This document shows positions 16,661 to 31,054 of a DNA stretch of 64,000 bases, one piece after another (positions within the stretch are counted from its first letter, which is position 1; each line of letters starts with the position of its first letter). The position numbers were made by a program, and so were the translations under genes. Below the pieces are notes generated by a model. That model ran no database searches and was not told where the DNA came from. It worked only from the letters and a program-made list of their open reading frames with translations. The DNA is from Collinsella phocaeensis (GTDB lineage: Bacteria > Actinomycetota > Coriobacteriia > Coriobacteriales > Coriobacteriaceae). The stretch lies in the NCBI RefSeq assembly GCF_900119895.1, contig NZ_FQLR01000004.1, forward strand, positions 868,001 to 932,000, in the 5' to 3' direction.

Positions 16661-17126
16661 CTTGCATGCCTGGCCACCGGCAGCACTCCATGCATCGGTC
16701 AGGCCGACCGTGGGATCGTCTGCTTTCTGTCCGGATCCGTCACGATGCCCTGCGCAACGCTGCCCAACGTTTCTGAAGGGGTCTCCCGTATTTCTTTCGC
16801 GCCTTCTGAATGGACCTTTCCGTTTGCCGGCGAAATCCTACCGTCTGCATCCTGTACGGAACGTTTCCGAATCGTTTCCAAACGGTCACAACGACGAAAG
16901 AATATGCGCAAATATACAGTTCATCGATAGCAATATGCTGCGTTTATAGAGGACACGCTTTCGCAAAATAAAGAAAATGCTGAGTGATAACCAAAATCAG
17001 CACTTTATTATGCACAAGTTGGGTTAAGGTATTGCCTACGCAACGCGCCCGGTGGGCCTGCAGCCTGGGGTCGTCGGCAACCGCTGCGTGCGCTGCCCGC
17101 ACTCCGGGTGGCGTGGTCAATCACCG
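16661..17126 (+). promoter_or_regulatory. Non-coding control region upstream of oppA
   Basis: About 470 bp without a supported gene; GC falls towards its 3' part (16900-17030). It contains three related motifs with CGTTTC: AACGTTTCTGAA (16766-16777), AACGTTTCCGAA (16860-16871) and ATCGTTTCCAAA (16871-16882). A TGCTGA..TCAGCA hairpin lies near 16979-17002. The opp promoter is expected here but I cannot fix it. Confidence 0.45.
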
Positions 17127-17138
17127 AAGGAGGATGGC

Positions 17139-18830
17139 ATGGCTGAATTCAAGGTCAACGAGCCCGTGATGGGTCGTCGTGCGTTCGTGGGCGGTTCGCT
17201 CGCGGCTGGTTCGCTTGCGTTCCTGGCTGCTTGCGGCCAGAAGGGCGACGGCGCCGGTTCCGGCGACGCCCCTGCGACCGATGGCGGCAAGACGCTCAAC
17301 TACTACATCAACAACCCGGTCTGTATCGACCCCTATAACGTCCAGGAGGACCAGGGCACCCAGGTCGAGTTCCAGCTCTTCGATACCCTTATGCAGTTCG
17401 ACTTCGAGAACAACGAGCTCAAGGGTCTCGCCGCCGAGTCCTTCGACGCCACCGAGGACGCCACCGAGTTCACCTTCCATCTGGTCGAGGGCGCCAAGTT
17501 CCACAACGGCGACCCCGTCACCGCCCAGGACTTCGTCCGCGGCTGGACCCGTCTCGTGAGCCCGAAGAGCGCCATCGCCACCGAGTACGGCCCGTCCGAG
17601 ATCTCCTATCACCTCTCCGTTGTCGAGGGCTACGACGCGCTGGCCAACGGTGAGACCGACGAGTTCTCCGGCCTTTCCTGCCCGGATGACAACACCCTCG
17701 TCGTGAAGCTCTCCTCCGCCTATGCGGACTTCGCCTACATCGCCTCCCACCCGGCCCTGTCTCCGGTGCCGGCGTGCGCCGAGGAGGACGCCAAGAACTT
17801 CTACCTCGCCCCCGTGGGCAACGGTCCCTTCATGATGAAGCCCGATACCAAGTGGGAGGACGGCCAGTACATCGACATCGTCAAGTTCGACGACTACTAC
17901 GGCGAGCCCGCCAAGATCGACGGCGTCCACTTCATCATCCAGAAGGACATAGAGACCGCTTACAAGGAGTTCCAGGCCGGTAACCTCGACGTCTGCGACG
18001 TTCCCGTCGCTCAGATCGAGGCTGCTCGCAAGGAGCGCGGCGAGGCCGAGTACACCATGGAGGATGGCAAGCACATGCTCCTCGGTGCCGAGCCCTCCGC
18101 GTACTACCTCGTCGTGAACAACAACGACGAGCAGTTCAAGAACCCCGATCTCCGCAAGGGCGTCTCGCTCGCCATCAACCGCGAGGCCATCTGCGAGACC
18201 CTCTTCAAGGGCACCCGCACCCCGGCCGACGGCATCATCCCTCCGGGAATCGACGGCTACACCGAGGGCGCCTGGGAGTTCTCGGCCTACGACGTCGACA
18301 AGGCCAACGAGTATCTCGACAAGGTCGCCCCGATGAGCGGCGACTCCCGTGGCATCAACGTCGTTCTTACCTACAACCAGGACGGCGGCCACAAGGAGAT
18401 CATGGAGTCCGTCATCGGCGACCTCGCGAAGGTCGGCATCACCGCTGAGTCCGAGACCCCCGAGTGGTCTGCGGTTCTCGAGCAGTATACCGCCGGCACC
18501 TTCCAGTTCGGCCGTCTCGGCTGGATCGCCGACTACCCGATCATGGATAACTTCCTCTATCCGCTGTTCCACTCCGATTCCATCGGCGGCGACAACAAGT
18601 CCGGGTACAGCAACGCCGAGGTCGACAAGTTGATCGACGAGGCTCGCGCCACCACCGACGACGACGCCCGCATCGCGAAGATGAAGGAGGCCGACGCCAT
18701 CATCGCGTCCGACTGCCCGGTCATCCCGCTGATGTTCTACACTCACACCCTCGTGGGCTCCGATCGTATCAAGAACCTGTATGTCGACCCGCAGAAGAAG
18801 GCCGACCTTGCGACGTGCGAGCTTGCATAA
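17139..18830 (+). CDS. oppA: Oligopeptide ABC transporter substrate-binding lipoprotein
   Basis: Family 5 extracellular solute-binding protein that delivers peptides to the OppBC permease. The leader contains MGRRAFVGG, a twin-arginine-like motif, and the lipobox LAAC with the lipidated cysteine at residue 32, so it is a membrane-anchored lipoprotein. Family features include FTFHLVEGAKFHNGDPVTAQDF (about 110-130), DLRKGVSLAINREAI and FYTHTLVGSDRIKNL at the end. Length 563 residues. GAAGGAGG before ATG 17139 fixes the start. It is the first gene of oppABCDF and is separated from oppB by a promoter-like sequence and a hairpin. Confidence 0.94.
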   Translation: MAEFKVNEPVMGRRAFVGGSLAAGSLAFLAACGQKGDGAGSGDAPATDGGKTLNYYINNPVCIDPYNVQEDQGTQVEFQLFDTLMQFDFENNELKGLAAESFDATEDATEFTFHLVEGAKFHNGDPVTAQDFVRGWTRLVSPKSAIATEYGPSEISYHLSVVEGYDALANGETDEFSGLSCPDDNTLVVKLSSAYADFAYIASHPALSPVPACAEEDAKNFYLAPVGNGPFMMKPDTKWEDGQYIDIVKFDDYYGEPAKIDGVHFIIQKDIETAYKEFQAGNLDVCDVPVAQIEAARKERGEAEYTMEDGKHMLLGAEPSAYYLVVNNNDEQFKNPDLRKGVSLAINREAICETLFKGTRTPADGIIPPGIDGYTEGAWEFSAYDVDKANEYLDKVAPMSGDSRGINVVLTYNQDGGHKEIMESVIGDLAKVGITAESETPEWSAVLEQYTAGTFQFGRLGWIADYPIMDNFLYPLFHSDSIGGDNKSGYSNAEVDKLIDEARATTDDDARIAKMKEADAIIASDCPVIPLMFYTHTLVGSDRIKNLYVDPQKKADLATCELA

Positions 18831-18840
18831 CATACCTGAT

Positions 18841-18869
18841 TTGCGCAGCTTAGCGTAACGGGCTATACT
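18841..18869 (+). promoter_or_regulatory. Internal promoter between oppA and oppB
   Basis: TTGCGC (18841-18846) and TATACT (18864-18869, exact start within one base) are 17 bp apart. It would give oppBCDF transcription independent of oppA. Confidence 0.62.
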
Positions 18870-18882
18870 GAACGTTCGCGAT

Positions 18883-18920
18883 AACGGGATGCCGATCAAG
18901 GCGGTCGGCATCCCGTTTAA
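18883..18920 (+). terminator. Hairpin between oppA and oppB
   Basis: A perfect 12-bp stem (AACGGGATGCCG with CGGCATCCCGTT) followed by TAAGTTG. The T-run is short, so it may be a partial terminator or mRNA stabiliser that raises oppA over oppB. It sits within the first ~15 bases of a transcript from the internal promoter. Confidence 0.65.
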
Positions 18921-18953
18921 GTTGTCCCTACGATGGGGGAGAGAAAGACAAGT

Positions 18954-19991
18954 ATGGGTAAGTACATCATCAAGCGTGTGCTGCAATTCATCCCGGTCTT
19001 CTTGGGCGTGACGCTGATCCTGTTCGCGCTCCAGAACATCGTACCGGGCGATCCGATCAAGTTGATAGGTGGCGACAAAGCCCTGCCGCCGGCGACCGAG
19101 CTTCAGCTTCGCGTGCGTTATCACCTTGTTCAGGTCGATGAGAGCGGCAACGCTGTCCTGGACGAGAACGGTGATCCCGTTCCCGAGACCATGTGGAACC
19201 GCTACGTCTACTATATGACGGGCCTGCTCCACGGAGACCTCGGCCAGTCCTATCAGCGTAAGCTCCCGGTCACGGATATCTTCCTCCAGAAGTATCCCTA
19301 CACCGTCAAGCTCGCCGCGTGCGCCATCGTGCTCGAGGCCATCATGGGCATTGGCGCCGGCATCATCTCGGCGGTCAAGCGCTACTCCTTCTGGGACATC
19401 CTCGTGACGCTCACCACATCGGTGCTCGTCGCCGTTCCCGCGTTCTGGCTGGGCATGCTGCTCCAGCTCTTCTTCGGCGTGCTTATCAAAGACTGGACGG
19501 GAGGCGCCTTCTCCCTGCCCATCTCCGGCGCAGGCGGACCGTCCTCTCAGTACCAGGATTGGGTCCACTACATCCTGCCCGCCATCACCCTTGCATCCGT
19601 CTCCACGGCGTACGCCGCGCGCATCATGCGCTCGCAGCTGCTCGACGTGATGAATCAGGACTATATTCGCACCGCCAAGGCCAAGGGCCTGTCCAACCGC
19701 GCCATCATCTGGAAGCACGCTCTCAAGAACGCGCTTATCCCCGTCGTGACCTACATCGGCGTCGACTTCGGCGCGATGCTCTCCGGCGCGATCCTCACCG
19801 AGACGGTCTTCAACTGGCCGGGCATCGGCTCCGAGATCTACCGCGCCATCTCGATGCGCGACTGGCCTCTCGTCATGGGCGGCGTCACGCTCATCGTCGT
19901 GGTCGTCATGGTCATCAACCTGCTCGTCGATGTCAGCTACGCCTTCCTCGATCCGCGTATCCGCCTCGGCGGTCCTTCGGACAAGGCTTAA
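18954..19991 (+). CDS. oppB: Oligopeptide ABC transporter permease OppB
   Basis: Membrane subunit of the peptide importer, 345 residues. It begins with YIIKRVLQFIPVFLGVTLILF (first helix) and carries the periplasmic insert seen in OppB, then the EAA loop region ALKNALIPVVTYIGVDFGAMLSGAILTETVFNWPGIG that contacts the ATPases. ATG 18954 has GGGGGAGAG upstream at about 10 bp; the in-frame ATG at 18933 has none. oppC follows after 18 bp. Confidence 0.94.
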   Translation: MGKYIIKRVLQFIPVFLGVTLILFALQNIVPGDPIKLIGGDKALPPATELQLRVRYHLVQVDESGNAVLDENGDPVPETMWNRYVYYMTGLLHGDLGQSYQRKLPVTDIFLQKYPYTVKLAACAIVLEAIMGIGAGIISAVKRYSFWDILVTLTTSVLVAVPAFWLGMLLQLFFGVLIKDWTGGAFSLPISGAGGPSSQYQDWVHYILPAITLASVSTAYAARIMRSQLLDVMNQDYIRTAKAKGLSNRAIIWKHALKNALIPVVTYIGVDFGAMLSGAILTETVFNWPGIGSEIYRAISMRDWPLVMGGVTLIVVVVMVINLLVDVSYAFLDPRIRLGGPSDKA

Positions 19992-20009
19992 AGGGGAGAG
20001 TGAACTTAC

Positions 20010-20960
20010 GTGAACCAGACCAACAGTCCCGTCCAGCAGCAGGAAGCTGCCGCGAAGGCCGAGACCAAGAGCGCTTCTAAGGCCTCGGGCAAGTCCCGCA
20101 CTCTTTGGAGCGACGCCTTCAAGCGCCTGAAGAAGAACAAGCTCGCCGTCATCGGCATCTGCTGGATCGTCTTCGTCGTGCTCGTCGCGCTCACCGCCGA
20201 CCTCTGGGCCCAGCAGTGGCTCGGCTCGCCCACGGCGTCCGATTCCACCACGATGGCCACCACCTCGCTGCTGGCGCCTTGCGCTGAGCATCCCTTCGGT
20301 ACCGACTCGCTGGGCCGCGACATTCTCGTGCGCGTCATCTACGGCGCCCGCGTCTCGCTGTCCGTCGGTATCCTCGCGACCGCGATCTCCACGGCCATCG
20401 GGCTGGTGATGGGTGCCCTCGCCGGTTTCTACGGCGGCATCTGGGACACCATCATCATGCGCGCCGCCGACATCTTCCTGGCGTTCCCGTACGTCCTCTT
20501 CGTCGTGTCGCTCATCGCCGTCATCGGCCGCTCGCTCACCAACGTGTTCGTGGCCATCGGTATCCTCGGTTGGCCGTCGATCGCCCGCGTCTTCCGCAGT
20601 GCGATCCTCACCGTCAAGGAGAACGACTACGTCGATGCCGCGCGCGCTATGGGCGCTTCCGACGTCCGCATCATCGCGCGTCACATCTTCCCGAACTCCG
20701 TTGCCTCCATCGTCGTCTACGCGACGATGAACATCGGCGGCGCCATCCTCACCGAGAGCTCCCTGTCGTTCCTCGGCATGGGCGTCATCCCGCCTACGCC
20801 CTCGTGGGGTTCCATGATTCAGGACGGCCAAACGTATCTCATGACTGCGCCGTGGATGATGATCATGCCCGGCCTGGCCATTCTCACGACCGTGCTCGCG
20901 TTCACCCTTCTGGGTGATGGCTTGCGAGACGCGCTCGACGTCAAGATGAAGGATGCGTAA
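20010..20960 (+). CDS. oppC: Oligopeptide ABC transporter permease OppC
   Basis: Second permease subunit, 316 residues, starting at a GTG (20010) with AGGGGAGAG upstream. The N-terminal cytoplasmic tail of about 35 residues is Gln/Ala/Lys-rich, followed by KRLKKNKLAVIGICWI (OppC N-terminal domain), HPFGTDSLGRDILVRVIYGARVSL (about 95-118, a family hallmark) and the EAA loop ARHIFPNSVASIVVYATMNIGGAILTESSLSFLGMG. oppD begins 3 bp after the stop. Confidence 0.94.
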   Translation: MNQTNSPVQQQEAAAKAETKSASKASGKSRTLWSDAFKRLKKNKLAVIGICWIVFVVLVALTADLWAQQWLGSPTASDSTTMATTSLLAPCAEHPFGTDSLGRDILVRVIYGARVSLSVGILATAISTAIGLVMGALAGFYGGIWDTIIMRAADIFLAFPYVLFVVSLIAVIGRSLTNVFVAIGILGWPSIARVFRSAILTVKENDYVDAARAMGASDVRIIARHIFPNSVASIVVYATMNIGGAILTESSLSFLGMGVIPPTPSWGSMIQDGQTYLMTAPWMMIMPGLAILTTVLAFTLLGDGLRDALDVKMKDA

Positions 20961-20963
20961 GCG

Positions 20964-22094
20964 ATGAAGAAGGATTCCAAGAACTACGTCGATCTGAAGA
21001 CGCAGCCCATCCCCGAGGGAAGCCATCTTCTTGAGGTCGACGACCTCAAGATGTATTTCCATACCGAGGACGGTATCGTTCGCGCCGTCGACGGCGTGAG
21101 CTACACGCTCGACCGCGGTGAGACCCTCGGCGTCGTCGGCGAGTCCGGCTCCGGTAAGTCCGTGACGGCCATGACCATCATGGGCCTCATCTCGATGCCC
21201 CCGGGCAAGATCGAGGGGGGTGACGTCCGCTACCGCGGTCGCTCCATCCTCGAGATGTCCGAGGAGGAGATGCAGCATGTGCGCGGCAACGACATCGCCA
21301 TGATCTTCCAGGACCCCATGACCTCCCTGAACCCCGTCTACAAGATCGGTAAGCAGGTGGGTGAGGGCCTTCGCCTCCATCGCGGCTATTCCAAGCAGGA
21401 GGCTCTTAAGCGCGCCACCGAGCTGCTCGACCTCGTGGGTATCCCCGAGCCCGAGAAGCGCGTCAACGAGTACCCGCATCAGTTCTCCGGCGGCATGCGC
21501 CAGCGCGTCATGATCGCCATGGCGCTCGCTTGCGACCCCGACATCCTGATCGCCGACGAACCCACCACGGCTCTCGATGTGACCATCCAGGCTCAGATCA
21601 TCGAGCTCATGCAGGAGATGCAGGAGAAGAACGGCAACGCGATCATCATGATCACCCACGACCTCGGCGTCGTGGCCGACATGGCCGACAAGATCATGGT
21701 TATGTATGCCGGCCGCCCGGTGGAGTTCGGCACTGCCGACCAGATCTTCTACGAGAGCCGTCACCCCTACACCTGGGGTCTCATCCGCTCCATTCCGGAG
21801 CAGGCTATCGATGAGAAGAAGCCGCTCACGCCGATTCACGGCAACCCGCCTTCGCTCATGAACCTGCCCGCCGGCTGCGTGTTTGCGCCGCGTTGCCCGT
21901 ATGCCACCGAGAAGTGCATGAACGAGCGTCCTGAGCGCGTCATGTCCGCCGATGGCCACTACGCCGCCTGCCATTACGCTGCGGACGAGGACTTCGTCAA
22001 GAAGAACGCACCCGACACGTCCCGCTCCCGTGGCCATATCGCCACGGGCCAGCCTGACGTGCTCGCCCCCGAGTTGATTGGAGGTCAGGCGTAA
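20964..22094 (+). CDS. oppD: Oligopeptide ABC transporter ATPase OppD
   Basis: First ATPase of the Opp importer, 376 residues. Walker [10 protein letters not shown] (about 60), Q-loop [18 protein letters not shown], signature [32 protein letters not shown] and H-loop [11 protein letters not shown] are all present. The C-terminal oligopeptide-type extension carries the cysteine pattern [19 protein letters not shown], which in some relatives binds an Fe-S cluster. It is joined to oppF (stop TAA followed at once by ATG). Confidence 0.95.
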
Positions 22095-23123
22095 ATGACC
22101 GATACCACTGAGCGTACCCCGCTTCTTAAGGTCGAGCACCTGTCCAAGGAATTCCCCGCGGAGGCCGGCATGTTTGCCAAGCGCTTCTCCAAGCGCGTCG
22201 TCTCCGCCGTGAACGATATCTCCTTCGAGATCTACCCGGGCGAGACCTTCGGCCTTGTCGGCGAGTCCGGCTGCGGTAAGTCCACCACCGGCCGTTCGAT
22301 CATGCGCCTCACCAAACCCACGGCAGGCAAGGTCTTCTTCGAGGGCCGCGACATCTCCGAGATGAACAAGCATGAGCTCAAGGATATGCGCCGCGAGATG
22401 CAGTTCATCTTCCAGGATCCCTACGCGTCGCTCAATCCTCGCATGACCATCGGCGAGATCGTTTCCGAGCCGATGACCATCCACAACGTGGGCACGAAGG
22501 AAGAGCGCATGGAGACCGTGCGCGAGCTCCTCGACGTCGTCGGCCTCAATCCCGAGCACATCAACCGCTATCCGCATGAGTTCTCCGGCGGTCAGCGCCA
22601 GCGCGTCGGCATCGCCCGCGCGTTCGCGCTCAAACCGAAGCTCATCATCTGCGACGAGCCGGTTTCCGCACTCGACGTCTCCATTCAGGCGCAGGTCCTG
22701 AACCTGCTCAAGGACCTTCAGGACAAGTTCGGTACGGCGTATCTTTTCATCGCGCACGACCTGTCCGTCGTCCAGCATATTTCCGACCGCGTGGGCGTCA
22801 TGTACCTCGGCAAACTTGTCGAGCTTTCCGACTGGAAGACGCTCTACACCGAGCCGCACCATCCGTACACGCAGTCCCTGCTGTCGGCCGTTCCCGTGCC
22901 CGACCCGGATATCCAGCGTACGCGCAAGCGCATCATCCTCGCCGGAGATCCTCCCTCGCCGCTCGATCCGCCGTCCGGCTGCCGGTTCCACACGCGCTGT
23001 CCGATGGCAAGCGAGCGTTGCTCGCAGGACCAGCCCTCCTTCAATGAGGTTGCCCCGGGGCATTTCTGCGCGTGCCATTACGCGGAGCCGTTCCCCATCA
23101 AGGAGAGCCATATCGATCTGTAG
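22095..23123 (+). CDS. oppF: Oligopeptide ABC transporter ATPase OppF
   Basis: Second ATPase, 342 residues. Walker [15 protein letters not shown]-loop [18 protein letters not shown], signature [32 protein letters not shown] and H-loop [12 protein letters not shown] are visible, with the C-terminal [21 protein letters not shown] cysteine motif. It ends the opp operon and is followed by a strong terminator. Confidence 0.95.
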
Positions 23124-23134
23124 CGATCGTATAG

Positions 23135-23162
23135 GAGCCCCGGTTGTCCGGGGCTCTTTTCT
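23135..23162 (+). terminator. Intrinsic terminator of the opp operon
   Basis: A 9-bp GAGCCCCGG/CCGGGGCTC stem with TTGT loop and a TTTTCT tail. Confidence 0.92.
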
Positions 23163-23398
23163 ATCGCGGCAAGGTCTTGCGCGCCCTTCGCCTTGGATAC
23201 CCCTGTGCCGGAGAGGCGACCTCCCGGTCATCCGACCCGCATTTCGGGCTTGGGTGCACCTGCCGGGCGGGGTGGGCCATACTGCTGCATTCGTCCCAGG
23301 AAGCGGAGGCCATGCAGGTCATGGGATGGGATATAGCGCTCTCCAGACCGTCTAACCTGTAGATATCTTGTCCTGATGTCTTGATGGCACCGTATCTC

Positions 23399-23493: not shown

Positions 23494-23582
23494 GTCGGAG
23501 TGGCGGAATTGGCAGACGCGCTAGCTTGAGGTGCTAGTGACCGATTTTGGTCATGCGGGTTCAAGTCCCGCCTCCGACACCA
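23494..23582 (+). tRNA. tRNA-Leu (GAG)
   Basis: Class II tRNA with a long variable arm: GTCGGAG/CTCCGAC acceptor, anticodon loop TTGAGGT giving GAG, variable stem GACCGATTTTGGTC-like, CCA encoded. Confidence 0.94.
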
Positions 23583-23676: not shown

Positions 23677-26028
23677 ATGGACGCTATGGCTCAGATCGAG
23701 TTCGCCGAGCTGTCCCGCGTCGTCGAGGTCACGAGCGACGCCGTCGCCGTCTGCGCCCCCGACGGCTCGATTCTCCATGCCAACCGTCAGCTGCTCGCGC
23801 TGCTTAACCGCGATCGTGCTGCCGTTATCGGCGAGGACGTCAAAGACCTCCTGTTCAGCAACGTGTTCGAGCGCGCATGCGATCACAGCTTCCCGTTCAG
23901 CCTCGATGGCTCGGATAACGAATGCATGCTGAAGCTCGCCGACGGCTCGTTCGTCCCGGTTCGCGTGCGCGCCCTCGACATGCCGCACCCGCCTGTCAAA
24001 TCGATCGATTCCGCTGCCGCCGACCGCGTGCTCGTCGTTATGAAGAGCCTTGAGGAGCAGCGCGCCTACGACCGTGAGACCCAGCGCCTGCTCGCAGAGC
24101 TCAGGACGGCGAATACGCGCCTTTCCGGCACGCTGTCCGTCATCATGTCCGCAGCCGGCTCTAAAGATCTTCCCTCGTTGATCGACAGCGTGCTCAACAA
24201 GCTCGTCGACACGCTTGAGGCCGATGGGTCCACGCTCTACTTCGCCGAGAGCGGAGGCTTCAAGCTCCGCGGCGTCTCGAACGGCCTTACGCGCTCCTAT
24301 GTTCCCGAATTCATACCCTACGGTGCGGGGATACCTACCTACGTGCTGCGGGAGCAGCGCGCATGCCGCCTGTCCGTCATCCCCCTGCACAGTGCCGACG
24401 GACCCGCCTCCTTCACGCTGTTCGACATCGATGCGCGCCTCGAGCGGCCCTTGCGCGTGGAGAACGTTCCTCCGTACCGCACGCTTATCGCGGTCCCCGT
24501 CTATTTCGGCACGCAGATGCTCGGAATCATCGAGCTCGGGTGGACGCGGTCCCGCATACCGCGCGAGTACGACGCACGGGTGCTCGAGGTCGTCTGCGAG
24601 TACCTGTCTATCGAGCTCGTCGGGCTGGTGAGCGCCTTGCGGTCCCAGCGCACGGAGGACCTCACGCGGTCGCTCAACAGGATTCGGGAGCAGCTGTTCG
24701 ATGGGGAGGGCGAGCAGTCCGTCTTCGAGGAGGTGCGCCGCGAGATCGTCCGCATGCTCTCGTGCCGCCTGTGCTCGATCATCCCGGATGAGGCGGGGGG
24801 ATACCAGATCGATTTCGAGGGGGGCAGCCGTATCGCACTGCCCCTATCGGTCGACGAGACGTTCTTTTCCACGACCGCGCCGGCGGCGCGCGTCAGCGCC
24901 GTCGAGGGTCTTCCCTTTGCGCGGCCCCAGGGCGTGTGGTCTTGCACGCCGGACGACCTCGACGCGGTGCGGCTCGTTCGCGTGGACCTGACTTCCTGGG
25001 CGGGCAACTGGCTTGCGTCCTTCGGGCTGCCGTGCCAAGGCGTGTTCATCGACCTGCGCGCCCTCGCCGGCGCCACGGAGGACGCCGGCGGCGGCAGCGC
25101 GTCGTCCGGGCCGCTCATGTTTCTGCTCCTGCGCGACGCGACCCAGGAGCCCATCGATGACCTCGAGTACGATTACCTGGTGCGCCTCGCGCACGATTAC
25201 GAGATCGCCCACCAGGGTGCGCGCAAGGCCGAGTCCGAGCGCCGTATCGCGCAGACGCTGCAAGCGGGTATGCGGAGCGGCCTTGGATCCGTGCCCGGCC
25301 TGTCGAGCGACGCGCTCTATTCTTCCGCCACGCAGCAGGCGCTCGTGGGCGGGGACTTCTATACGCTCATCCGCCTGCCCGACGACCGTGCGGTCATGAT
25401 CCTCGGCGACGTGTCCGGAAAGGGCGTCGAGGCCGCGTCCATGTCGGCGCTCGTCAAGACGGCGCTCACCGCGTACGCCTGGGAGGGGGCGAGCCCGCAG
25501 AGCATGGTGCGCTCGCTCAACAGCATGCTCATGGGCTTCTCGCGCGTCGAGACGTTCGCGACCATGTTCGTGGCCAAGATCGATCTGCGCAGCGGCGTCG
25601 CGGCGTATTGCTCCGCAGGGCACCCTCCCACGGTCCTCATCCGGCCCGCGGCGCCCGCAGGGGAGGGGGAGGCTCGGCCGACCGAGCTCGAGGCGCTTCC
25701 CGTGCAATCCGGTGTCGTCGGCGCCTTCGAGAACATGGTGTATCGCAACGGGGTCTTCTCGTTCGCCCCGGGCGACATCCTGTTCATGTACACGGACGGC
25801 GCCATCGAGGCTCGCGACGCCGCGGGCAACTTCTTCGGCGAGCAGCGCCTGCACGAAACGCTTATTCGCGTCGCGCCCGAAGGTGTGGAGGGGCTGTGCG
25901 CCAAGGTGCTCGCCGAGCTCGACGAGTTCTCGGGCTCCGCGCTTGATGACGATATCGCGATGGTCGCCCTGCGGTTCGACTGCGGTGCCGATTCCGTGCG
26001 GGCCCTGCGGACGGGGGGCGCGGCGTGA
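23677..26028 (+). CDS. PAS-GAF-SpoIIE (PP2C) sensory serine phosphatase
   Basis: RsbU/SpoIIE-type phosphatase expected to dephosphorylate a STAS anti-anti-sigma protein. Cytosolic, 783 residues, no membrane segment. A PAS-like domain lies at about 8-110 (VVEVTSDAVAVCAPDGSILH), a GAF domain at about 155-310, a divergent linker at 320-520, and the PP2C-type SpoIIE domain from about 525: ALVGGDFYTLIRLPD, MILGDVSGKGVEAASMSALV, CSAGHPPTVLI, FMYTDGAIEARDAAGNFFG, SALDDDIAMVALRF, which give the metal-binding aspartates. CGGAGG fixes the start at 23677. The next gene encodes a STAS-HATPase protein, its likely partner. The signal sensed is unknown. Confidence 0.9.
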   Translation: MDAMAQIEFAELSRVVEVTSDAVAVCAPDGSILHANRQLLALLNRDRAAVIGEDVKDLLFSNVFERACDHSFPFSLDGSDNECMLKLADGSFVPVRVRALDMPHPPVKSIDSAAADRVLVVMKSLEEQRAYDRETQRLLAELRTANTRLSGTLSVIMSAAGSKDLPSLIDSVLNKLVDTLEADGSTLYFAESGGFKLRGVSNGLTRSYVPEFIPYGAGIPTYVLREQRACRLSVIPLHSADGPASFTLFDIDARLERPLRVENVPPYRTLIAVPVYFGTQMLGIIELGWTRSRIPREYDARVLEVVCEYLSIELVGLVSALRSQRTEDLTRSLNRIREQLFDGEGEQSVFEEVRREIVRMLSCRLCSIIPDEAGGYQIDFEGGSRIALPLSVDETFFSTTAPAARVSAVEGLPFARPQGVWSCTPDDLDAVRLVRVDLTSWAGNWLASFGLPCQGVFIDLRALAGATEDAGGGSASSGPLMFLLLRDATQEPIDDLEYDYLVRLAHDYEIAHQGARKAESERRIAQTLQAGMRSGLGSVPGLSSDALYSSATQQALVGGDFYTLIRLPDDRAVMILGDVSGKGVEAASMSALVKTALTAYAWEGASPQSMVRSLNSMLMGFSRVETFATMFVAKIDLRSGVAAYCSAGHPPTVLIRPAAPAGEGEARPTELEALPVQSGVVGAFENMVYRNGVFSFAPGDILFMYTDGAIEARDAAGNFFGEQRLHETLIRVAPEGVEGLCAKVLAELDEFSGSALDDDIAMVALRFDCGADSVRALRTGGAA

Positions 26029-26086
26029 CGGCCGGCAAGTTCGGTCTCGGTGAATACGCCGCGCTTCGAGCGGGAACCATGCTGAT

Positions 26087-26815
26087 ATGAACGAATGGAG
26101 CGACATAGCGGTTATCGCGCCCGCCGGAGACATCGACATCTCCATGCTCGATGGTCTGCGGGCGCAGGTCGACGGCCTCATCGACGGCGGGGCGAGCCGC
26201 GTGCTCGTCAACTGTCAGGCGGTCGGCTTCATCGACTCCTCCGGGATCGCCTTCCTGCTGTCGTGCGCGCGCCGCTTGGCGCGAACCGGGGGGTTGCTCT
26301 CCCTGGTCAACACGTCTCCTAATGTGACCCGCTTCATACAGATCGCGTGCCTGGCCGAGGTTCTTCATGTCACCGCCGCGGAGCGCCCGCCCGTGCCCGT
26401 TCTCGCGCCGGGCGCCATGCCGCTCTGGAGCACGAGCCTCTCGGTCCAGCCTGGGATCGAGCACCTCGGCTATTACCGCCATCGCGTCGCCGACATGCTC
26501 GCGGACGTGCGGATGGGGGAGAGCGATCGCTTCGATATGGCGCTCGCGGTGGGCGAGGCTCTCTCGAACGCATACGACCATGCCGACGATGCCTGCGGCT
26601 GCAGGCTGACGGTGACCGCGTACGCCGACCGCATCGTCGTCGAGGTGCGGGACAGCGGATGCGGCTTCGAACTCGCCGAGGGCGATGAGCCGACGGCGAC
26701 GCGGGAGCGCGGTCGCGGCATCCGTCTGATGCGCATGCTCGTGGACAGCGTCGAGGTGCGTCGCCGTGTCGAGTCCCCGGGCACGCTGGTCCGCCTTATC
26801 AAGATGCTCGTGTAG
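26087..26815 (+). CDS. STAS domain fused to a RsbW-like HATPase (anti-sigma kinase) domain
   Basis: A 242-residue fusion of two partner-switching parts that are normally separate and opposed. Residues 1-105 form a STAS domain (VIAPAGDIDISMLDGL, then GFIDSSGIAFLLS, where the DSSG serine is the usual phosphosite). Residues about 120-242 form a GHKL ATPase like RsbW/SpoIIAB: N-box ALAVGEALSNAYDHADDA, G1 box EVRDSGCGFEL, G2 box RGRGIRLMRMLVDSVEVRR. It lies 58 bp after the SpoIIE-type phosphatase gene. No sigma factor gene is adjacent. The Shine-Dalgarno sequence is weak. It may autophosphorylate its own STAS serine (inference). Confidence 0.85.
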   Translation: MNEWSDIAVIAPAGDIDISMLDGLRAQVDGLIDGGASRVLVNCQAVGFIDSSGIAFLLSCARRLARTGGLLSLVNTSPNVTRFIQIACLAEVLHVTAAERPPVPVLAPGAMPLWSTSLSVQPGIEHLGYYRHRVADMLADVRMGESDRFDMALAVGEALSNAYDHADDACGCRLTVTAYADRIVVEVRDSGCGFELAEGDEPTATRERGRGIRLMRMLVDSVEVRRRVESPGTLVRLIKMLV

Positions 26816-26917: not shown

Positions 26918-26993
26918 GCGGACATGGCTCAGTTGGTAGAGCACAACCTTGCCAAGGTTGGGGTCGCGGGTTCGAGCCCCGTTGTCCGCTCCA
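26918..26993 (+). tRNA. tRNA-Gly (GCC), copy 2
   Basis: Same 76-nt gene as the minus-strand copy at 2135-2210, anticodon GCC, CCA encoded. Followed by a small GAGCCG/CGGCTC hairpin before tRNA-Cys. Confidence 0.95.
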
Positions 26994-27038
26994 TCGCATG
27001 CAAGGAGCCGGTTTCACATCGGCTCTTTTCATATAGAT

Positions 27039-27112
27039 GGCGAAGTGGCCAAGTGGTAAGGCAGAGGCCTGCAAAGCCTTTACCCCCGGTTCGAATCCGG
27101 GCTTCGCCTCCA
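27039..27112 (+). tRNA. tRNA-Cys (GCA), copy 2
   Basis: Same 74-nt gene as the copy at 2016-2089, anticodon GCA, CCA encoded; cotranscribed with tRNA-Gly. Confidence 0.95.
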
Positions 27113-27405: not shown

Positions 27406-28263
27406 TCATTCGACGTCCTTGTCCTCTCCGATGAGCTCCTCATAGGTGCTGATGCGTTCGCGCGCGTCATCGATTTCGGGAAGCAGGAAGTTGTAGAGCA
27501 CTTCGATCACGAGGATCGCTGATATCTTGGAGAACGTGAAGTCGCCGGTGGTGAGCAGGGCCTCGTGGTTCACGGTCTGAAGGACGAGGTCGGCGGCGCT
27601 CCCGAGCGGTGAGGACGGATAGCCGGTGATGACGACGCAGGTCGCCCCGGCGCTTCGGGCGGCGGACATGGTGTCGAGCAGGCGGCGGGACTTCCCTGAG
27701 TTGGATATCGCGATGAACACATCGCCGGGGCGCAGCGTGAGCGCATAGGCCTTCGCCGCCTCCGACACCTCGAAGGTGGCGCTTCTCAGCCCGAGCTGGC
27801 CGAACTTGATGCTCGCGTCGAGCGCGACCGCATGGGTGTTGCCTACGGCGGCGAGCTGGATGCAGCCCGCCGAGCGTATCGCGTCGACGCACGACCGGAG
27901 CGCCGCGGGATCGATGGCGCGGATGGTCGATTCGATCTCGCTGATCTTTGCATTCTGGATGTTGCGGAGCGACTGCTCGATATCGTCGAGCGATACCTCG
28001 CGCGTCACGCCGTCGTCGTGCGCCAGCGCGACATCGCGGGCGAGGGAGAACTGGAAGCTCCGGTAGCTGCCGAAGCCGAGTCGCTTGCAGAACCGCGACA
28101 CCGTCGCCTCGGACGTCGAGCTGCTGCGGGCGAGTTGCGCCAAGGTCATGCCCGCGGCGTCGGCCTGGTTGGAGAGGATGAACTCGACGATCCTCTGCTC
28201 TGTTTCGAAGAAATCGCGCTTGCTGCTGATGAGTCCGAGCGCGCTGGGTTGCGATTTGCCCAT
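27406..28263 (-). CDS. RpiR/MurR-family transcriptional regulator (HTH + SIS)
   Basis: Sugar-phosphate-responsive regulator, 285 residues. The N-terminal HTH (about 1-80) has LAQLARSSSTSEATVSRFCKRLGF, the RpiR signature; the C-terminal SIS domain (about 115-260) has AVGNTHAVALDASIKFGQLG and DVFIAISNSGKSRRLLDTM, which bind a phosphosugar. CAAAGGAG upstream of ATG 28263 decides the start over an in-frame ATG at 28308. It is transcribed away from the fructose PTS operon, from which 235 bp separate it, and most likely controls it. The GAAAGAAAC repeats between the genes are candidate operators. Confidence 0.9.
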   Translation of the reverse strand: MGKSQPSALGLISSKRDFFETEQRIVEFILSNQADAAGMTLAQLARSSSTSEATVSRFCKRLGFGSYRSFQFSLARDVALAHDDGVTREVSLDDIEQSLRNIQNAKISEIESTIRAIDPAALRSCVDAIRSAGCIQLAAVGNTHAVALDASIKFGQLGLRSATFEVSEAAKAYALTLRPGDVFIAISNSGKSRRLLDTMSAARSAGATCVVITGYPSSPLGSAADLVLQTVNHEALLTTGDFTFSKISAILVIEVLYNFLLPEIDDARERISTYEELIGEDKDVE

Positions 28264-28294
28264 GATGCTCCTTTGGAAGACATTGCTATGACGG

Positions 28295-28418
28295 GTCTCT
28301 TTCACCATACCTCAGATGTGTACCTTATTTACCTGCAAAAAGACTGATTGGTTCCATCTACCGCTTACCGGAAAGAAACTACCTTTCATATGGAACTTAA
28401 GTTGTGAAAGAAACTAAC
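28295..28418. promoter_or_regulatory. Candidate RpiR operator repeats in the divergent rpiR-fruA region
   Basis: Three related sites: GTGAAAGAGAC on the minus strand (28305-28295), GAAAGAAACTACCTTTC (28371-28387, itself a GAAAG/CTTTC palindrome) and TGAAAGAAACTAAC (28405-28418). The last two share GAAAGAAACTA. Their placement between a regulator and its likely target supports an operator role. Confidence 0.55.
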
Positions 28419-28498
28419 ACCAAGAAGGCATGCTAGATTTTCATCATGGAACGAATGCGGCGCATGGGGCGCCGCGATTCGATAGGGAAGGGGGACGC

Positions 28499-30550
28499 AT
28501 GGCACAGCAGTTCGACATCATTGCTGCGACCGGATGCCCGACCGGGATAGCGCATACCTTCATGGCGAAGGAAGCGCTTGAGAAAGCCGCCGCGGAGCGC
28601 GGGCTCACCATCAAGGTCGAGACCCATGGTCAGGTCGGCGTCGAGAACGGGTTGAGCGCAGGCGAGATCGCCGCGGCGCGCGCCGTGGTGGTCGCCGCCG
28701 ACAAGGACGTGAGCGCCGAGCGCTTCGCCGGCAAGCCCATGGTCTCGGTCGGCGTGTCCAAAGCGCTGTCCGTCGAGGCTGCCGGCGCGCTCATCGATCG
28801 CGCCCTGGCGGCCAAGGCGGATCCCAGCGCCGTCGCAGCCCAGGCTGCCGAGGATGCGCCCGAGGAGAAGGAGTCCTTCGGCCATCAGCTCTACAAGCAC
28901 CTCATGAACGGCGTCTCCCACATGCTGGTGTTCGTCGTCGCCGGCGGCGTCCTCACGGCGCTGTCGTTCCTGTGGGGCATCACCTCGTTCGATTCGACGG
29001 CGGCCGACTACAACTCTTTCGCCGCCATGCTCAAGATCATCGGCGGCATCGCGATGAACCTCATGGTTCCCGTCCTGTCCGCCTATATCGCCGAGTCCAT
29101 CGGCAAGCGCCCCGCGCTCGTACCCGGCTTCGTGGCCGGCATGATCGCCATCCAGGGCCTGCCCGTCAACGCCGCGACCGGCATGATCGATGCGGGCGGC
29201 GCCGGCGTGGGCTTCGGCTTCCTCGGCGGCATCGTCGGCGGCTTCCTGTCCGGTTACGTCATCCTGCTGCTGGAGAAGGTCTTCTCCAAGCTCCCCGCCA
29301 ACCTCAACGGCCTCAAGGCGATCTTCCTCTATCCGCTGTTCTCCACGCTCATCGTCGGCCTCGTGATGCTCGGCATCTCCGGTCCCATGGTCACGATCAA
29401 CAACGCCATGATGGACTTCCTGCGCAGCCTGCAGCATGCCGGTGCCATTCCGCTGGGCATCGCCATCGGCTGCATGTGCGCGGTCGACATGGGCGGCCCG
29501 GTCAACAAGGCTGCCTACGTCACCGGCACCATGCTGCTCGGCGCCGGCCTCGAGGCGGGCGTGGGCACTCCCGAGTACGCCGACGGCACCGCGTTCATGG
29601 CCGCCGTCTCCGCAGCCTGCATCGTTCCGCCGCTGGTCACGAGCTTCGCCGTCATCGTCGGCAAGAAGTATTTCTCCCAGGAAGACCATGACGCCGGCAT
29701 CGTCAACATCATCCTCGGCTGCACGCACATCACCGAGGGTGCCATCCCGTTCATGACCAAGAACATCTGGCCCGTCATGCCGATCATGATGCTGTCCTCC
29801 GCGCTCGCATCCGTGCTCACCCTGCTGCTCGGTGTCCACGTCCCCGCTCCCCACGGCGGCTTCCTGGTCCTGCCCGTCGTCGACGGCGGCATCCAGTGGG
29901 TGCTCGCCATCCTCGCCGGCACCGTCGTGGGCGGCATCCTGTTCACCGTCTTCAAGAAGCATGAGTGGGCTCGCGGCCAGCGGGCTTTCGAGGCCTCCCC
30001 GGCCATGCCCGCCGCGGCCGAGCGGCCCGATGCCTCCCCCGAGCCCGCCGATGCCCCCGCTCCGTCGGCGGACCCCGCCTCCGAGCCCGCCGAGGTCCAG
30101 GACTTCGTCTCTGCCGACAACGTCTTCCTCGGCCTTGATCTGGCCGGCCGCGACGACGCGCTCTCCTTCGTGAGCAACGAAGCGGTCAAGCTCGGCATCG
30201 CCGACGACGCCGACGAGCTCATGGCCGCCTTCCTCAAGCGCGAGGACGAGGGCTCGACCGGCATGATGGACGGCTTCGCCATCCCGCACGCCAAGGCCGC
30301 CACGGTCAAGCGCGCCGCCGTCGTCGTCGTGAAGGACGACGGCGGGATCGAGGGCTGGGAGTCCATGGACGGCGCCCCCGTCAACGTGGCCATCGCCCTG
30401 TTGATACCCGAGTCCCAGGCCGGGACCACCCATCTCAAGCTCCTGTCCAAGGTCGCCGAGGCGCTCATGGACGACGAGTTCCGCTCGACGGTCAAGTCTG
30501 CCGACGACGCGCAGGAGATCGCGGGAGCCATCAACGCGCGGCTCGGCTAG
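28499..30550 (+). CDS. fruA: PTS fructose-family EIIBCA permease
   Basis: A single 683-residue polypeptide that imports and phosphorylates a sugar, probably fructose. Domain order: EIIB at 1-100 (phospho-Cys13 in ATGCPTGIAHTF), EIIC at about 120-490 with FGHQLYKHLMNGVSHMLVFV, FVAGMIAIQGLPVN and GCTHITEGAIPF, then an Ala/Pro-rich linker (about 500-535) and EIIA at about 537-683 with phospho-His597 in DGFAIPHAKAA. The ATG at 28499 follows GGGAAGGGGG; an earlier in-frame ATG has no such site. It heads fruA-ptsH-ptsI-fruK-fruK and lies opposite an RpiR gene. Confidence 0.94.
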   Translation: MAQQFDIIAATGCPTGIAHTFMAKEALEKAAAERGLTIKVETHGQVGVENGLSAGEIAAARAVVVAADKDVSAERFAGKPMVSVGVSKALSVEAAGALIDRALAAKADPSAVAAQAAEDAPEEKESFGHQLYKHLMNGVSHMLVFVVAGGVLTALSFLWGITSFDSTAADYNSFAAMLKIIGGIAMNLMVPVLSAYIAESIGKRPALVPGFVAGMIAIQGLPVNAATGMIDAGGAGVGFGFLGGIVGGFLSGYVILLLEKVFSKLPANLNGLKAIFLYPLFSTLIVGLVMLGISGPMVTINNAMMDFLRSLQHAGAIPLGIAIGCMCAVDMGGPVNKAAYVTGTMLLGAGLEAGVGTPEYADGTAFMAAVSAACIVPPLVTSFAVIVGKKYFSQEDHDAGIVNIILGCTHITEGAIPFMTKNIWPVMPIMMLSSALASVLTLLLGVHVPAPHGGFLVLPVVDGGIQWVLAILAGTVVGGILFTVFKKHEWARGQRAFEASPAMPAAAERPDASPEPADAPAPSADPASEPAEVQDFVSADNVFLGLDLAGRDDALSFVSNEAVKLGIADDADELMAAFLKREDEGSTGMMDGFAIPHAKAATVKRAAVVVVKDDGGIEGWESMDGAPVNVAIALLIPESQAGTTHLKLLSKVAEALMDDEFRSTVKSADDAQEIAGAINARLG

Positions 30551-30594
30551 CATGATGTTCCCCGGGGCGCGCCCCCTGTAACCGCCACCCCCGT

Positions 30595-30630
30595 CGGGCC
30601 GGCCCGCACCGTGCGCGCCGGCCCGTTTTC
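30595..30630 (+). terminator. Intrinsic terminator between fruA and ptsH
   Basis: CGGGCCGGC pairs with GCCGGCCCG, then TTTT. ptsH therefore probably also has its own promoter; a TACACT hexamer lies at 30722-30727. Confidence 0.85.
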
Positions 30631-30790
30631 CAGACGGGCGCCGACGGTTGCGGAAGGTGGTGGGAGCGCGTTAATTCCCCTTGCTCCGGTGTTCTCGAGC
30701 TGTATTCCCCGAGGGATGCGGTACACTAGCGGTTGTTATCGTGCGCCGCGTCCATCGAGTGCGCAGCGCTGGTCTAAAAAGGAGACATCC

Positions 30791-31054
30791 ATGGTTTCTG
30801 AGAAGGTCACCCTCGTCAACCCGCAGGGCCTGCACATGCGTCCGGCCGGTCTGTTCGCGTCCTCCATGGGCAAGTACGCCTGCGACGTGACCATCGTCAC
30901 CGCCGACAAGGAGGTCAACGGCAAGAGCCCGATGGCCCTCATGGCCGCCGGCATCCCGTGCGGCACCGAAGTCGAGGTCAAGTGCGACGGCGCCGACGAG
31001 GCCGAGGCACTCGCCTGCGCGGTCGAGCTCATCAAGAGCGGCTTGGGCGAGTAG
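30791..31054 (+). CDS. ptsH: Phosphocarrier protein HPr
   Basis: General PTS phosphocarrier, 88 residues, cytosolic. His15 lies in NPQGLHMRPAG (the EI phosphorylation site) and Ser46 in NGKSPMALMAAGI (the position phosphorylated by HPr kinase in Gram-positives). AAAAGGAG precedes ATG 30791. It lies between the fructose permease and EI genes and is likely the HPr for the mannose-family system too, since no other ptsH is in the window. Confidence 0.96.
   Translation: MVSEKVTLVNPQGLHMRPAGLFASSMGKYACDVTIVTADKEVNGKSPMALMAAGIPCGTEVEVKCDGADEAEALACAVELIKSGLGE

What the first reader, a model, noticed from the sequence alone, without database searches (positions are those of the whole stretch)
23677..26815. 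STAS domain fused to a RsbW-like kinase, next to a PAS-GAF-SpoIIE phosphatase
The protein at 26087-26815 joins an anti-anti-sigma (STAS) domain with a conserved DSSG phosphosite to a GHKL kinase domain of the anti-sigma type. In Bacillus-like systems these are separate, opposing proteins. The upstream gene encodes a soluble sensory PP2C phosphatase. Together they could form a two-gene switch in which the kinase phosphorylates its own STAS domain and the phosphatase resets it, possibly controlling a sigma factor elsewhere or a non-sigma target. Domain calls rest on visible motifs; the circuit is inference.
Basis: partly seen in the sequence, partly recalled or inferred. Interest (0 to 1): 0.62.

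Follow-up and report, generated by a model that had tools for sequence, protein, structure and literature searches.

The report
Kinase fused to its substrate switch
A gut bacterium of the Collinsella type carries one protein that joins a switch domain to the kinase expected to turn it off, next to the phosphatase expected to turn it back on; many relatives in its class share this pair, together with a stress-type sigma factor whose own holder protein appears to have lost its kinase.

Summary
Window 26087-26815 encodes a 242-aa STAS + GHKL (RsbW-type) fusion with intact phosphosite and N, G1, G2 boxes, directly behind a GAF-SpoIIE phosphatase with a weak PAS match (23677-26028). It is no sequencing artefact: 179 of 246 Coriobacteriia genomes sampled match it, and the 40 homologues read keep the catalytic residues.

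New here is the likely target. Elsewhere in the genome lies a SigB/F/G-family sigma gene behind an RsbW-like gene. In all 70 relatives of that RsbW-like protein examined, the catalytic Asn, G1 and G2 are gone while the Arg aligned with SpoIIAB Arg20 stays: a kinase-dead anti-sigma factor. Fusion and sigma occur together in 174 genomes, the fusion alone in 5, the sigma alone in 0, neither in 67.

Best reading: a split partner switch. The fusion kinase inactivates its own STAS domain, the phosphatase reactivates it, and STAS then pulls the dead-kinase anti-sigma off the sigma. Both ideas have precedents: Mycobacterium smegmatis RsbW1/RsbW2 (split roles) and Actinoplanes SipA (same architecture). 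So: a new variant of a known kind. No activity was tested.

The parts
23677..26028 (+). GAF-SpoIIE (PP2C-type) phosphatase with a weak N-terminal PAS match, 783 aa from ATG 23677 (788 aa from 23662; residue numbers here count from 23662)
   Evidence: Pfam SpoIIE 8.1e-46, GAF over cut-off, PAS below cut-off. D565, D583, D712, D763, D764 kept in 40 of 40 homologues; that these bind metal is recalled. Homologue upstream of the fusion on the same strand in 74 of 80 named loci.
26087..26815 (+). STAS-GHKL fusion, 242 aa: STAS about 5-95, linker about 96-113, GHKL kinase about 114-240
   Evidence: Pfam, NCBIfam, class survey and fold. D50, S51, E157, N161, D189, G191, G209, R210, G211 kept in 40 of 40 homologues.
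26237..26239 (+). codon of Ser51, predicted phosphosite (aligned with SpoIIAA Ser58; number recalled)
   Evidence: D50-S51 in 40 of 40 and in all 43 rows of A3
26052..26080 (+). promoter-like element GAATA - N15 - GGGAACCAT, first A of GGGAA 12 nt before the fusion ATG; resembles SigB/F-type promoters
   Evidence: GGGRA with first A exactly 12 nt before the start in 38 of 59 distinct upstream regions. Own site scores 23.1 with a matrix trained without it; best score in one shuffled window 16.0. Function inferred.
23494..23582 (+). tRNA-Leu(gag), left neighbour of the gene pair
   Evidence: ARAGORN
26918..27112 (+). tRNA-Gly(gcc) and tRNA-Cys(gca), right neighbours of the gene pair
   Evidence: ARAGORN

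Best explanation
A split partner-switching system. The fusion's GHKL domain is a dedicated serine kinase that phosphorylates Ser51 of the STAS domain it is joined to (in cis or across a dimer). The neighbouring GAF-SpoIIE phosphatase removes the phosphate when its sensor part reports a signal. Unphosphorylated STAS binds the kinase-dead RsbW-like anti-sigma factor encoded next to the SigB/F/G-family sigma gene (G000:C1:1215822-1216986, outside the window) and frees the sigma. The stand-alone STAS protein (G000:C1:340626-340934) may be a second antagonist and kinase substrate. Shown by sequence: domains, conserved catalytic residues, lost N/G1/G2 boxes in the anti-sigma, shared distribution. 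Inferred: every phosphorylation and binding step.
For: Catalytic residues and phosphosite invariant in the 40 fusions read. Phosphatase gene next door (74 of 80 named loci) with conserved Asp residues. In the own genome the fusion holds the only HATPase_c_2 domain over cut-off. The RsbW-like gene beside the sigma has Tyr, Phe, Leu or Trp in place of the N-box Asn, a deleted G1 and no G2 in 70 of 70 loci, but keeps the Arg aligned with SpoIIAB Arg20 in 70 of 70; all 70 are followed by the sigma. The sigma is SigBFG, 291.9 bits against cut-off 234.35. Distribution: fusion and sigma 174, fusion only 5, sigma only 0, neither 67 of 246; fusion and anti-sigma 173, fusion only 6, anti-sigma only 1, neither 66. 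Precedent: in M. smegmatis RsbW1 binds SigF and does not phosphorylate RsfB, RsbW2, in an operon with RsfB, is the kinase, and a nearby PP2C phosphatase reverses it. A SigB/F-type promoter-like element precedes the fusion.
Against: No biochemistry. The shared distribution follows families (all 52 genomes of f3 lack fusion, anti-sigma and sigma), so it amounts to only a few independent losses. G130 (98% complete, 2 contigs) keeps the fusion and a phosphatase match but shows no anti-sigma or sigma; the other four fusion-only genomes are 64-94% complete. Genomes of f7 and related families have 4-15 HATPase_c_2 matches at E 1e-4, f1 and f2 genomes 1-12, not classified here, so other kinases may exist. 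Sigma and fusion genes lie about 320 kb apart in the own genome. The promoter-like element is not seen before the sigma operon (1 of 70, shuffled control 1) or the stand-alone STAS gene (0 of 30), and relaxed versions mark no regulon in 864 kb of the own genome. In SipA, the published protein of the same architecture, the RsbW-like domain acts as the anti-sigma factor itself.
Confidence: 0.62

Rival explanations
1. The fusion is itself the anti-sigma factor, as SipA is in Actinoplanes: its RsbW-like domain holds a sigma factor and its STAS domain is an internal regulator.
For: Same architecture and nearly the same length as SipA (243 aa, STAS 6-103, RsbW-like 158-239). The Arg aligned with SpoIIAB Arg20 is kept in 40 of 40 fusions.
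Against: A separate RsbW-like protein sits directly at the sigma gene in 70 of 70 loci. The own sigma has no STAS domain (only 3 STAS hits in the genome, none in it), whereas SipA acts through a STAS domain on its sigma. Fusion kinases and the RsbW-like proteins form separate groups.
Confidence: 0.18
2. The fusion's kinase mainly phosphorylates the separate, tatA-linked STAS protein in trans; the fused STAS domain serves dimerisation or docking.
For: The stand-alone STAS protein keeps D-S-[T/S]-G in the 31 loci read, 30 of them from the own family. A STAS match occurs in 180 of 246 genomes, nearly the same set as the fusion (where the fusion itself can also match).
Against: The fused STAS keeps its own phosphosite in 40 of 40, hard to explain for a mere scaffold.
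Confidence: 0.15
3. The pair controls something other than a sigma factor, such as a transporter or the Tat system, and its shared distribution with the sigma reflects lineage only.
For: G130 keeps the fusion and a phosphatase match without the sigma or anti-sigma. The stand-alone STAS gene lies in front of a tatA-like gene in the 31 loci read.
Against: None of the 67 fusion-negative genomes has the sigma; the sigma belongs to the family that partner switches normally control (that link is recalled).
Confidence: 0.1

Closest known systems
Mycobacterium smegmatis SigF switch: RsbW1 (anti-sigma), RsfB-RsbW2 operon, RsfR phosphatase (PMC7693655, PMC10950880; abstracts and passages read)
   Same: Anti-sigma without detected kinase activity encoded beside the sigma gene; dedicated kinase encoded next to its STAS substrate; PP2C-type phosphatase nearby
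   Different: Kinase and STAS are separate proteins there; the phosphatase has a receiver domain and a histidine kinase partner instead of GAF (and PAS)
SipA of Actinoplanes missouriensis (PMC10733313; discussion section and passages read)
   Same: STAS then RsbW-like domain in one chain of 243 aa; works with a SigB/F/G sigma
   Different: Its sigma lies next door and carries its own STAS domain; SipA is the anti-sigma; no partner phosphatase was seen in the parts read; the authors knew of no similar protein and found orthologues only in Micromonosporaceae and one Nonomuraea
Rv1364c of Mycobacterium tuberculosis (as described in PMC7693655 and PMC10950880; 3ke6)
   Same: GHKL kinase and SpoIIE-type phosphatase that act on the serine of its own STAS domain
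   Different: All in one chain in the order sensor-phosphatase-kinase-STAS; here the phosphatase is separate and STAS precedes the kinase
Bacillus SpoIIAA/SpoIIAB/SpoIIE and RsbV/RsbW/RsbU (largely recalled)
   Same: Same three domain families and phosphosite position
   Different: There one protein is both kinase and anti-sigma; here these roles appear divided, and the kinase is fused to a STAS domain

Membership tests
STAS anti-sigma antagonists (RsbV/SpoIIAA) | STAS domain with conserved phosphorylatable Ser after Asp | tested here: met
   Pfam STAS, TIGR00377 over cut-off; D50-S51 in 40 of 40
RsbW/SpoIIAB GHKL serine kinases | N, G1 and G2 boxes of the ATP site | tested here: met
   E157, N161, D189, G191, G209-R210-G211 in 40 of 40; G193 in 39 of 40; fold matches SpoIIAB Z 17.3, rmsd 2.4, 126 aligned
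RsbW/SpoIIAB GHKL serine kinases | Score over the NCBIfam equivalog cut-offs (spIIAB, rsbW) | tested here: not met
   36.6 bits against 135 (spIIAB), 23.1 against 155.05 and 30.4 against 145 (rsbW): a relative, not an orthologue by that standard
RsbW/SpoIIAB GHKL serine kinases | Kinase activity and sigma binding | not testable with these tools
   needs purified proteins
SpoIIE/RsbU PP2C phosphatases | SpoIIE domain with the metal-binding Asp residues (role recalled) | tested here: met
   8.1e-46; D565, D583, D712, D763, D764 in 40 of 40
SipA (Actinoplanes) | N-terminal STAS, C-terminal RsbW-like domain in one chain | tested here: met
   the SipA sequence itself was not compared
SipA (Actinoplanes) | Partner sigma with a C-terminal STAS domain, encoded near the fusion | tested here: not met
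   The own sigma, 264 aa, is matched by SigBFG over residues 32-255 and has no STAS hit; the genes lie about 320 kb apart
Rv1364c-type single-chain switch | Phosphatase, kinase and STAS in one polypeptide | tested here: not met
   Phosphatase is a separate ORF; STAS precedes the kinase
Mycobacterial-type split switch (RsbW1 / RsbW2) | RsbW-like anti-sigma without the kinase motifs beside the sigma gene, plus a second, intact kinase beside its STAS partner | tested here: met
   0 of 70 anti-sigmas have the N-box Asn; intact kinase joined to STAS. By sequence only; activity not tested

The most novel reading that the evidence does not exclude
A tethered, self-resetting partner switch used by much of a bacterial class: the antagonist never leaves its kinase, so the whole fusion docks on the kinase-dead anti-sigma and carries its own off-switch into the complex. 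The freed sigma then transcribes the fusion from its own SigB-type promoter, closing a feedback loop. The fusion arose from an ancestral neighbouring rsbV-rsbW pair in Coriobacteriia, after the anti-sigma had already lost its kinase.
Probability: 0.3. Interest if true: 0.62.

Novelty: new variant of a known kind. Interest (0 to 1): 0.5.

Why it matters
Textbook partner switches rest on one protein that both holds the sigma factor and phosphorylates the antagonist. Here many members of a class of gut and environmental bacteria appear to have divided these jobs and fused the kinase to its substrate. If true, kinase-dead anti-sigma factors are widespread in Actinomycetota rather than a mycobacterial exception, and a stress-type sigma of Collinsella and its relatives, for which no study of its control was found in my searches, gets a complete, testable circuit.

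Tried and rejected
Sequencing error or chance fusion: rejected, since the fused frame recurs across the class.

Fusion as the anti-sigma factor: kept as a rival; less likely because a dedicated RsbW-like gene sits at the sigma gene.

Regulon search: the strict element occurs 5 times in the own genome (control 2), and only the fusion copy stands before a plausible gene. Relaxed versions gave 5 and 6 sites upstream of rough gene starts in 864 kb, against 7, 1 and 2 for three control patterns. No regulon can be claimed. A GTTT-type scan gave 0 of 70 upstream of the anti-sigma (shuffle mean 0.64), 2 of 40 for the phosphatase (0.93), 8 of 40 for the fusion (0.27) and 0 of 30 for the STAS gene (0.17). 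With the matrix at 12 or more: 22 of 40 fusion genes (control 2), partly by construction because it was trained on them; anti-sigma 1 of 70 (control 1), STAS 0 of 30, phosphatase 0 of 38. In the window, 12 sites reach 7.5 against 23 in one shuffle, so only the top score stands out.

Second SpoIIE hit in the own genome (L010, 23.1 bits, 30.4 with its neighbours in the frame, in a 1625-residue open frame): not interpreted.

Literature: ten searches, open-access library only and with capped listings, showed me no paper on this fusion in Coriobacteriia. PMC8256260 (term search, no passage found) and PMC4255298 (passages) gave nothing on it.

Fold search shows no function, and families absent from its list are not excluded. 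A direct comparison with the SipA sequence was not made; I had no copy.
Full report
What is there. Two genes on the + strand lie between tRNA-Leu (23494-23582) and tRNA-Gly/tRNA-Cys (26918-27112). The first (23677-26028) is a sensor phosphatase: GAF over cut-off, PAS only below cut-off, SpoIIE at 8.1e-46. The second (26087-26815, 242 aa) joins STAS (residues 5-95) and HATPase_c_2 (125-239). Its predicted structure is confident (mean pLDDT 87.4, pTM 0.79). The kinase half aligns with SpoIIAB (1thn_A, Z 17.3, rmsd 2.4, 126 residues) and with the RsbW domain of Rv1364c (3ke6_B, Z 15.4); the other half aligns with STAS antagonists (3f43, Z 14.2).

Is it real and kept. The fusion query matches 179 of 246 Coriobacteriia genomes at E 1e-6 or better. 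The listed rows, down to 2.4e-26, are nearly all full length; the weakest positives (for example G017, G085, G107, G133, G149, G151) may be partial or hits to other STAS or kinase genes. From the positives I read 40, chosen to span families: D50, S51, R131, E157, N161, D189, G191, G209, R210 and G211 are identical in 40 of 40, G193 in 39. A scan of named genomes found 377 encoding stretches, of which the best 80 were kept (Collinsella, Enorma, Olsenella, Atopobium, Thermophilibacter and others). The phosphatase lies upstream on the same strand in 74 of 80 (3 to 1061 nt between the aligned parts), nearby in another arrangement in 4, and was not found in 2 loci. Its five Asp residues are kept in 40 of 40 homologues.

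The rest of the circuit. In the own genome the fusion holds the only HATPase_c_2 match over cut-off; three weaker ones lie in open frames of 472-964 residues that I did not examine. The fourth, at 20.2 bits, is a 129-aa protein whose gene overlaps the start of a sigma gene. That sigma is over the SigBFG cut-off (291.9 against 234.35). The 129-aa protein is found in 174 of 246 genomes. I examined 70 loci (68 distinct sequences): the 30 best returned and 40 chosen from other families. All 70 are followed by the sigma. At the N-box Asn they have Tyr 54, Phe 12, Leu 2, Trp 2; the G1 stretch is deleted in 70; no G2 is seen; the Glu aligned with SpoIIAB Glu46 and the Arg aligned with Arg20 are kept in 70 (the alignment used my recalled SpoIIAB). 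Profile comparison ties the family to B. subtilis RsbW (6m36_A, 2.5e-12), and 30 of 37 members match HATPase_c_2 at E 0.01. So this looks like an anti-sigma factor that can no longer be a kinase. Two PDB chains named 'Anti-sigma-F factor RsbW', matched only weakly (E 0.08), also lack the N-box Asn in the printed alignment.

Distribution. Sigma hits split cleanly: 5.3e-58 or better in sigma-bearing genomes, 6.5e-30 or weaker (or none) in the other 72; I take the weak ones to be the housekeeping sigma. Fusion with sigma 174; fusion only 5 (G061, G121, G125, G130, G149); sigma only 0; neither 67. With the anti-sigma: 173 both, 6 fusion only (G061, G121, G123, G125, G130, G149), 1 anti-sigma only (G141, 70% complete), 66 neither. 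All 49 sampled genomes of family f1 and all 60 of f2 have a fusion match; all 52 of f3, 9 of f8, 3 of f9 and 1 of f4 lack it, so losses are few and clade-wise. G130 is 98% complete and still lacks sigma and anti-sigma while its fusion keeps all motifs: a real exception. In f7 and related families several HATPase_c_2 matches occur per genome (4-15 at E 1e-4), so the fusion is not there the only candidate kinase.

Where the fusion came from. In 346 genomes across the phylum, 22 Coriobacteriia carry the fused frame (stops reported in four of those rows fall at the ends of the match, since one search shows none over the core of the same places). Of the 14 full-length matches elsewhere, all of which I read, 13 are separate neighbouring STAS and kinase genes, with the N-box Asn present in the 10 aligned; one (G490) is fused. 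The kinase-dead anti-sigma is wider: of 131 genomes matched in the phylum, I read the 8 best outside the class, and all 8 sit beside the sigma and lack the Asn, one of them read from a partial ORF. Weaker matches in that list include intact kinases. In a tree of 64 domains, fusion kinases (88/75) and Coriobacteriia anti-sigmas (100/99) form separate groups. The simplest history is fusion of an rsbV-rsbW pair in this class after the anti-sigma had lost its kinase; this is inference.

A promoter-like element. In 38 of 59 distinct upstream regions GGGRA stands with its first A exactly 12 nt before the fusion start; 15 of the 59 have no such motif near the start and 6 have it elsewhere. Of 45 aligned rows (one a duplicate of the own site) 34 have G, 43 A or T, 35 T and 27 A at the places of G-N-W-T-A further up. 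The published promoter of the Actinoplanes SigB/F/G factor SsdA is GnTT-n14-CGGGTA, rather similar. This suggests that the sigma transcribes the fusion, perhaps as a leaderless message. Against it: the element is not seen before the sigma operon or the stand-alone STAS gene, and no regulon emerged. Relatedness of the genomes inflates the count.

Mechanism. By analogy with M. smegmatis, where RsbW1 binds SigF and did not phosphorylate RsfB, RsbW2 phosphorylates RsfB, and RsfR dephosphorylates it (abstracts and passages read), the fusion is read as a joined RsfB-RsbW2. Ser51 phosphate would keep STAS off the dead-kinase anti-sigma; the phosphatase would restore binding and free the sigma. The nearest protein by architecture is SipA (243 aa), where the RsbW-like domain acts as anti-sigma against a sigma that itself bears STAS; its authors knew of no similar protein and reported orthologues only in Micromonosporaceae and one Nonomuraea. 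The Coriobacteriia family shares SipA's layout but not its partner arrangement.

Verdict. A real and widely conserved switch of Coriobacteriia; a new variant of partner switching. Its special points are the kinase joined to its likely substrate and the separate kinase-dead anti-sigma. All activities remain to be shown.

Noticed in passing
L006 1456-1782 (own genome G000:C1:340626-340934) and L151-L180, L182: A stand-alone STAS protein with D-S-[T/S]-G stands in front of a tatA-like gene (found by a short motif) in the 31 loci read, 30 of them from the own family; why a sigma antagonist would be linked to Tat is unexplained.
   Followed up: partly
G130 (L184 7043-9803): A 98% complete genome keeps a fusion with all motifs and a phosphatase match but shows no anti-sigma or SigB/F/G sigma; a natural test case for a second role.
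   Followed up: partly
window 26052-26080: SigB/F-type promoter-like element at fixed distance before the fusion ATG, conserved in many relatives; possible leaderless start.
   Followed up: partly
L261-L268: Kinase-dead RsbW-like gene plus sigma pairs in other lineages of the phylum, so the loss of the kinase motifs is not confined to Coriobacteriia.
   Followed up: partly
L231 4837-9988 (G490): The only fused STAS-kinase among 14 loci read outside Coriobacteriia, with further STAS, kinase and SpoIIE ORFs beside it; independent fusion or transfer not resolved.
   Followed up: no
window 20010-23123 and 27406-31054: Neighbours by eye: ABC transporter genes of the oligopeptide type to the left; an RpiR-type regulator, a fructose-type PTS gene and an HPr-like gene to the right (names recalled, no search run).
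   Followed up: no
window 17121-23231 (-): A 2036-aa antisense open frame over the ABC transporter genes, most likely a by-product of GC-rich codon use.
   Followed up: no
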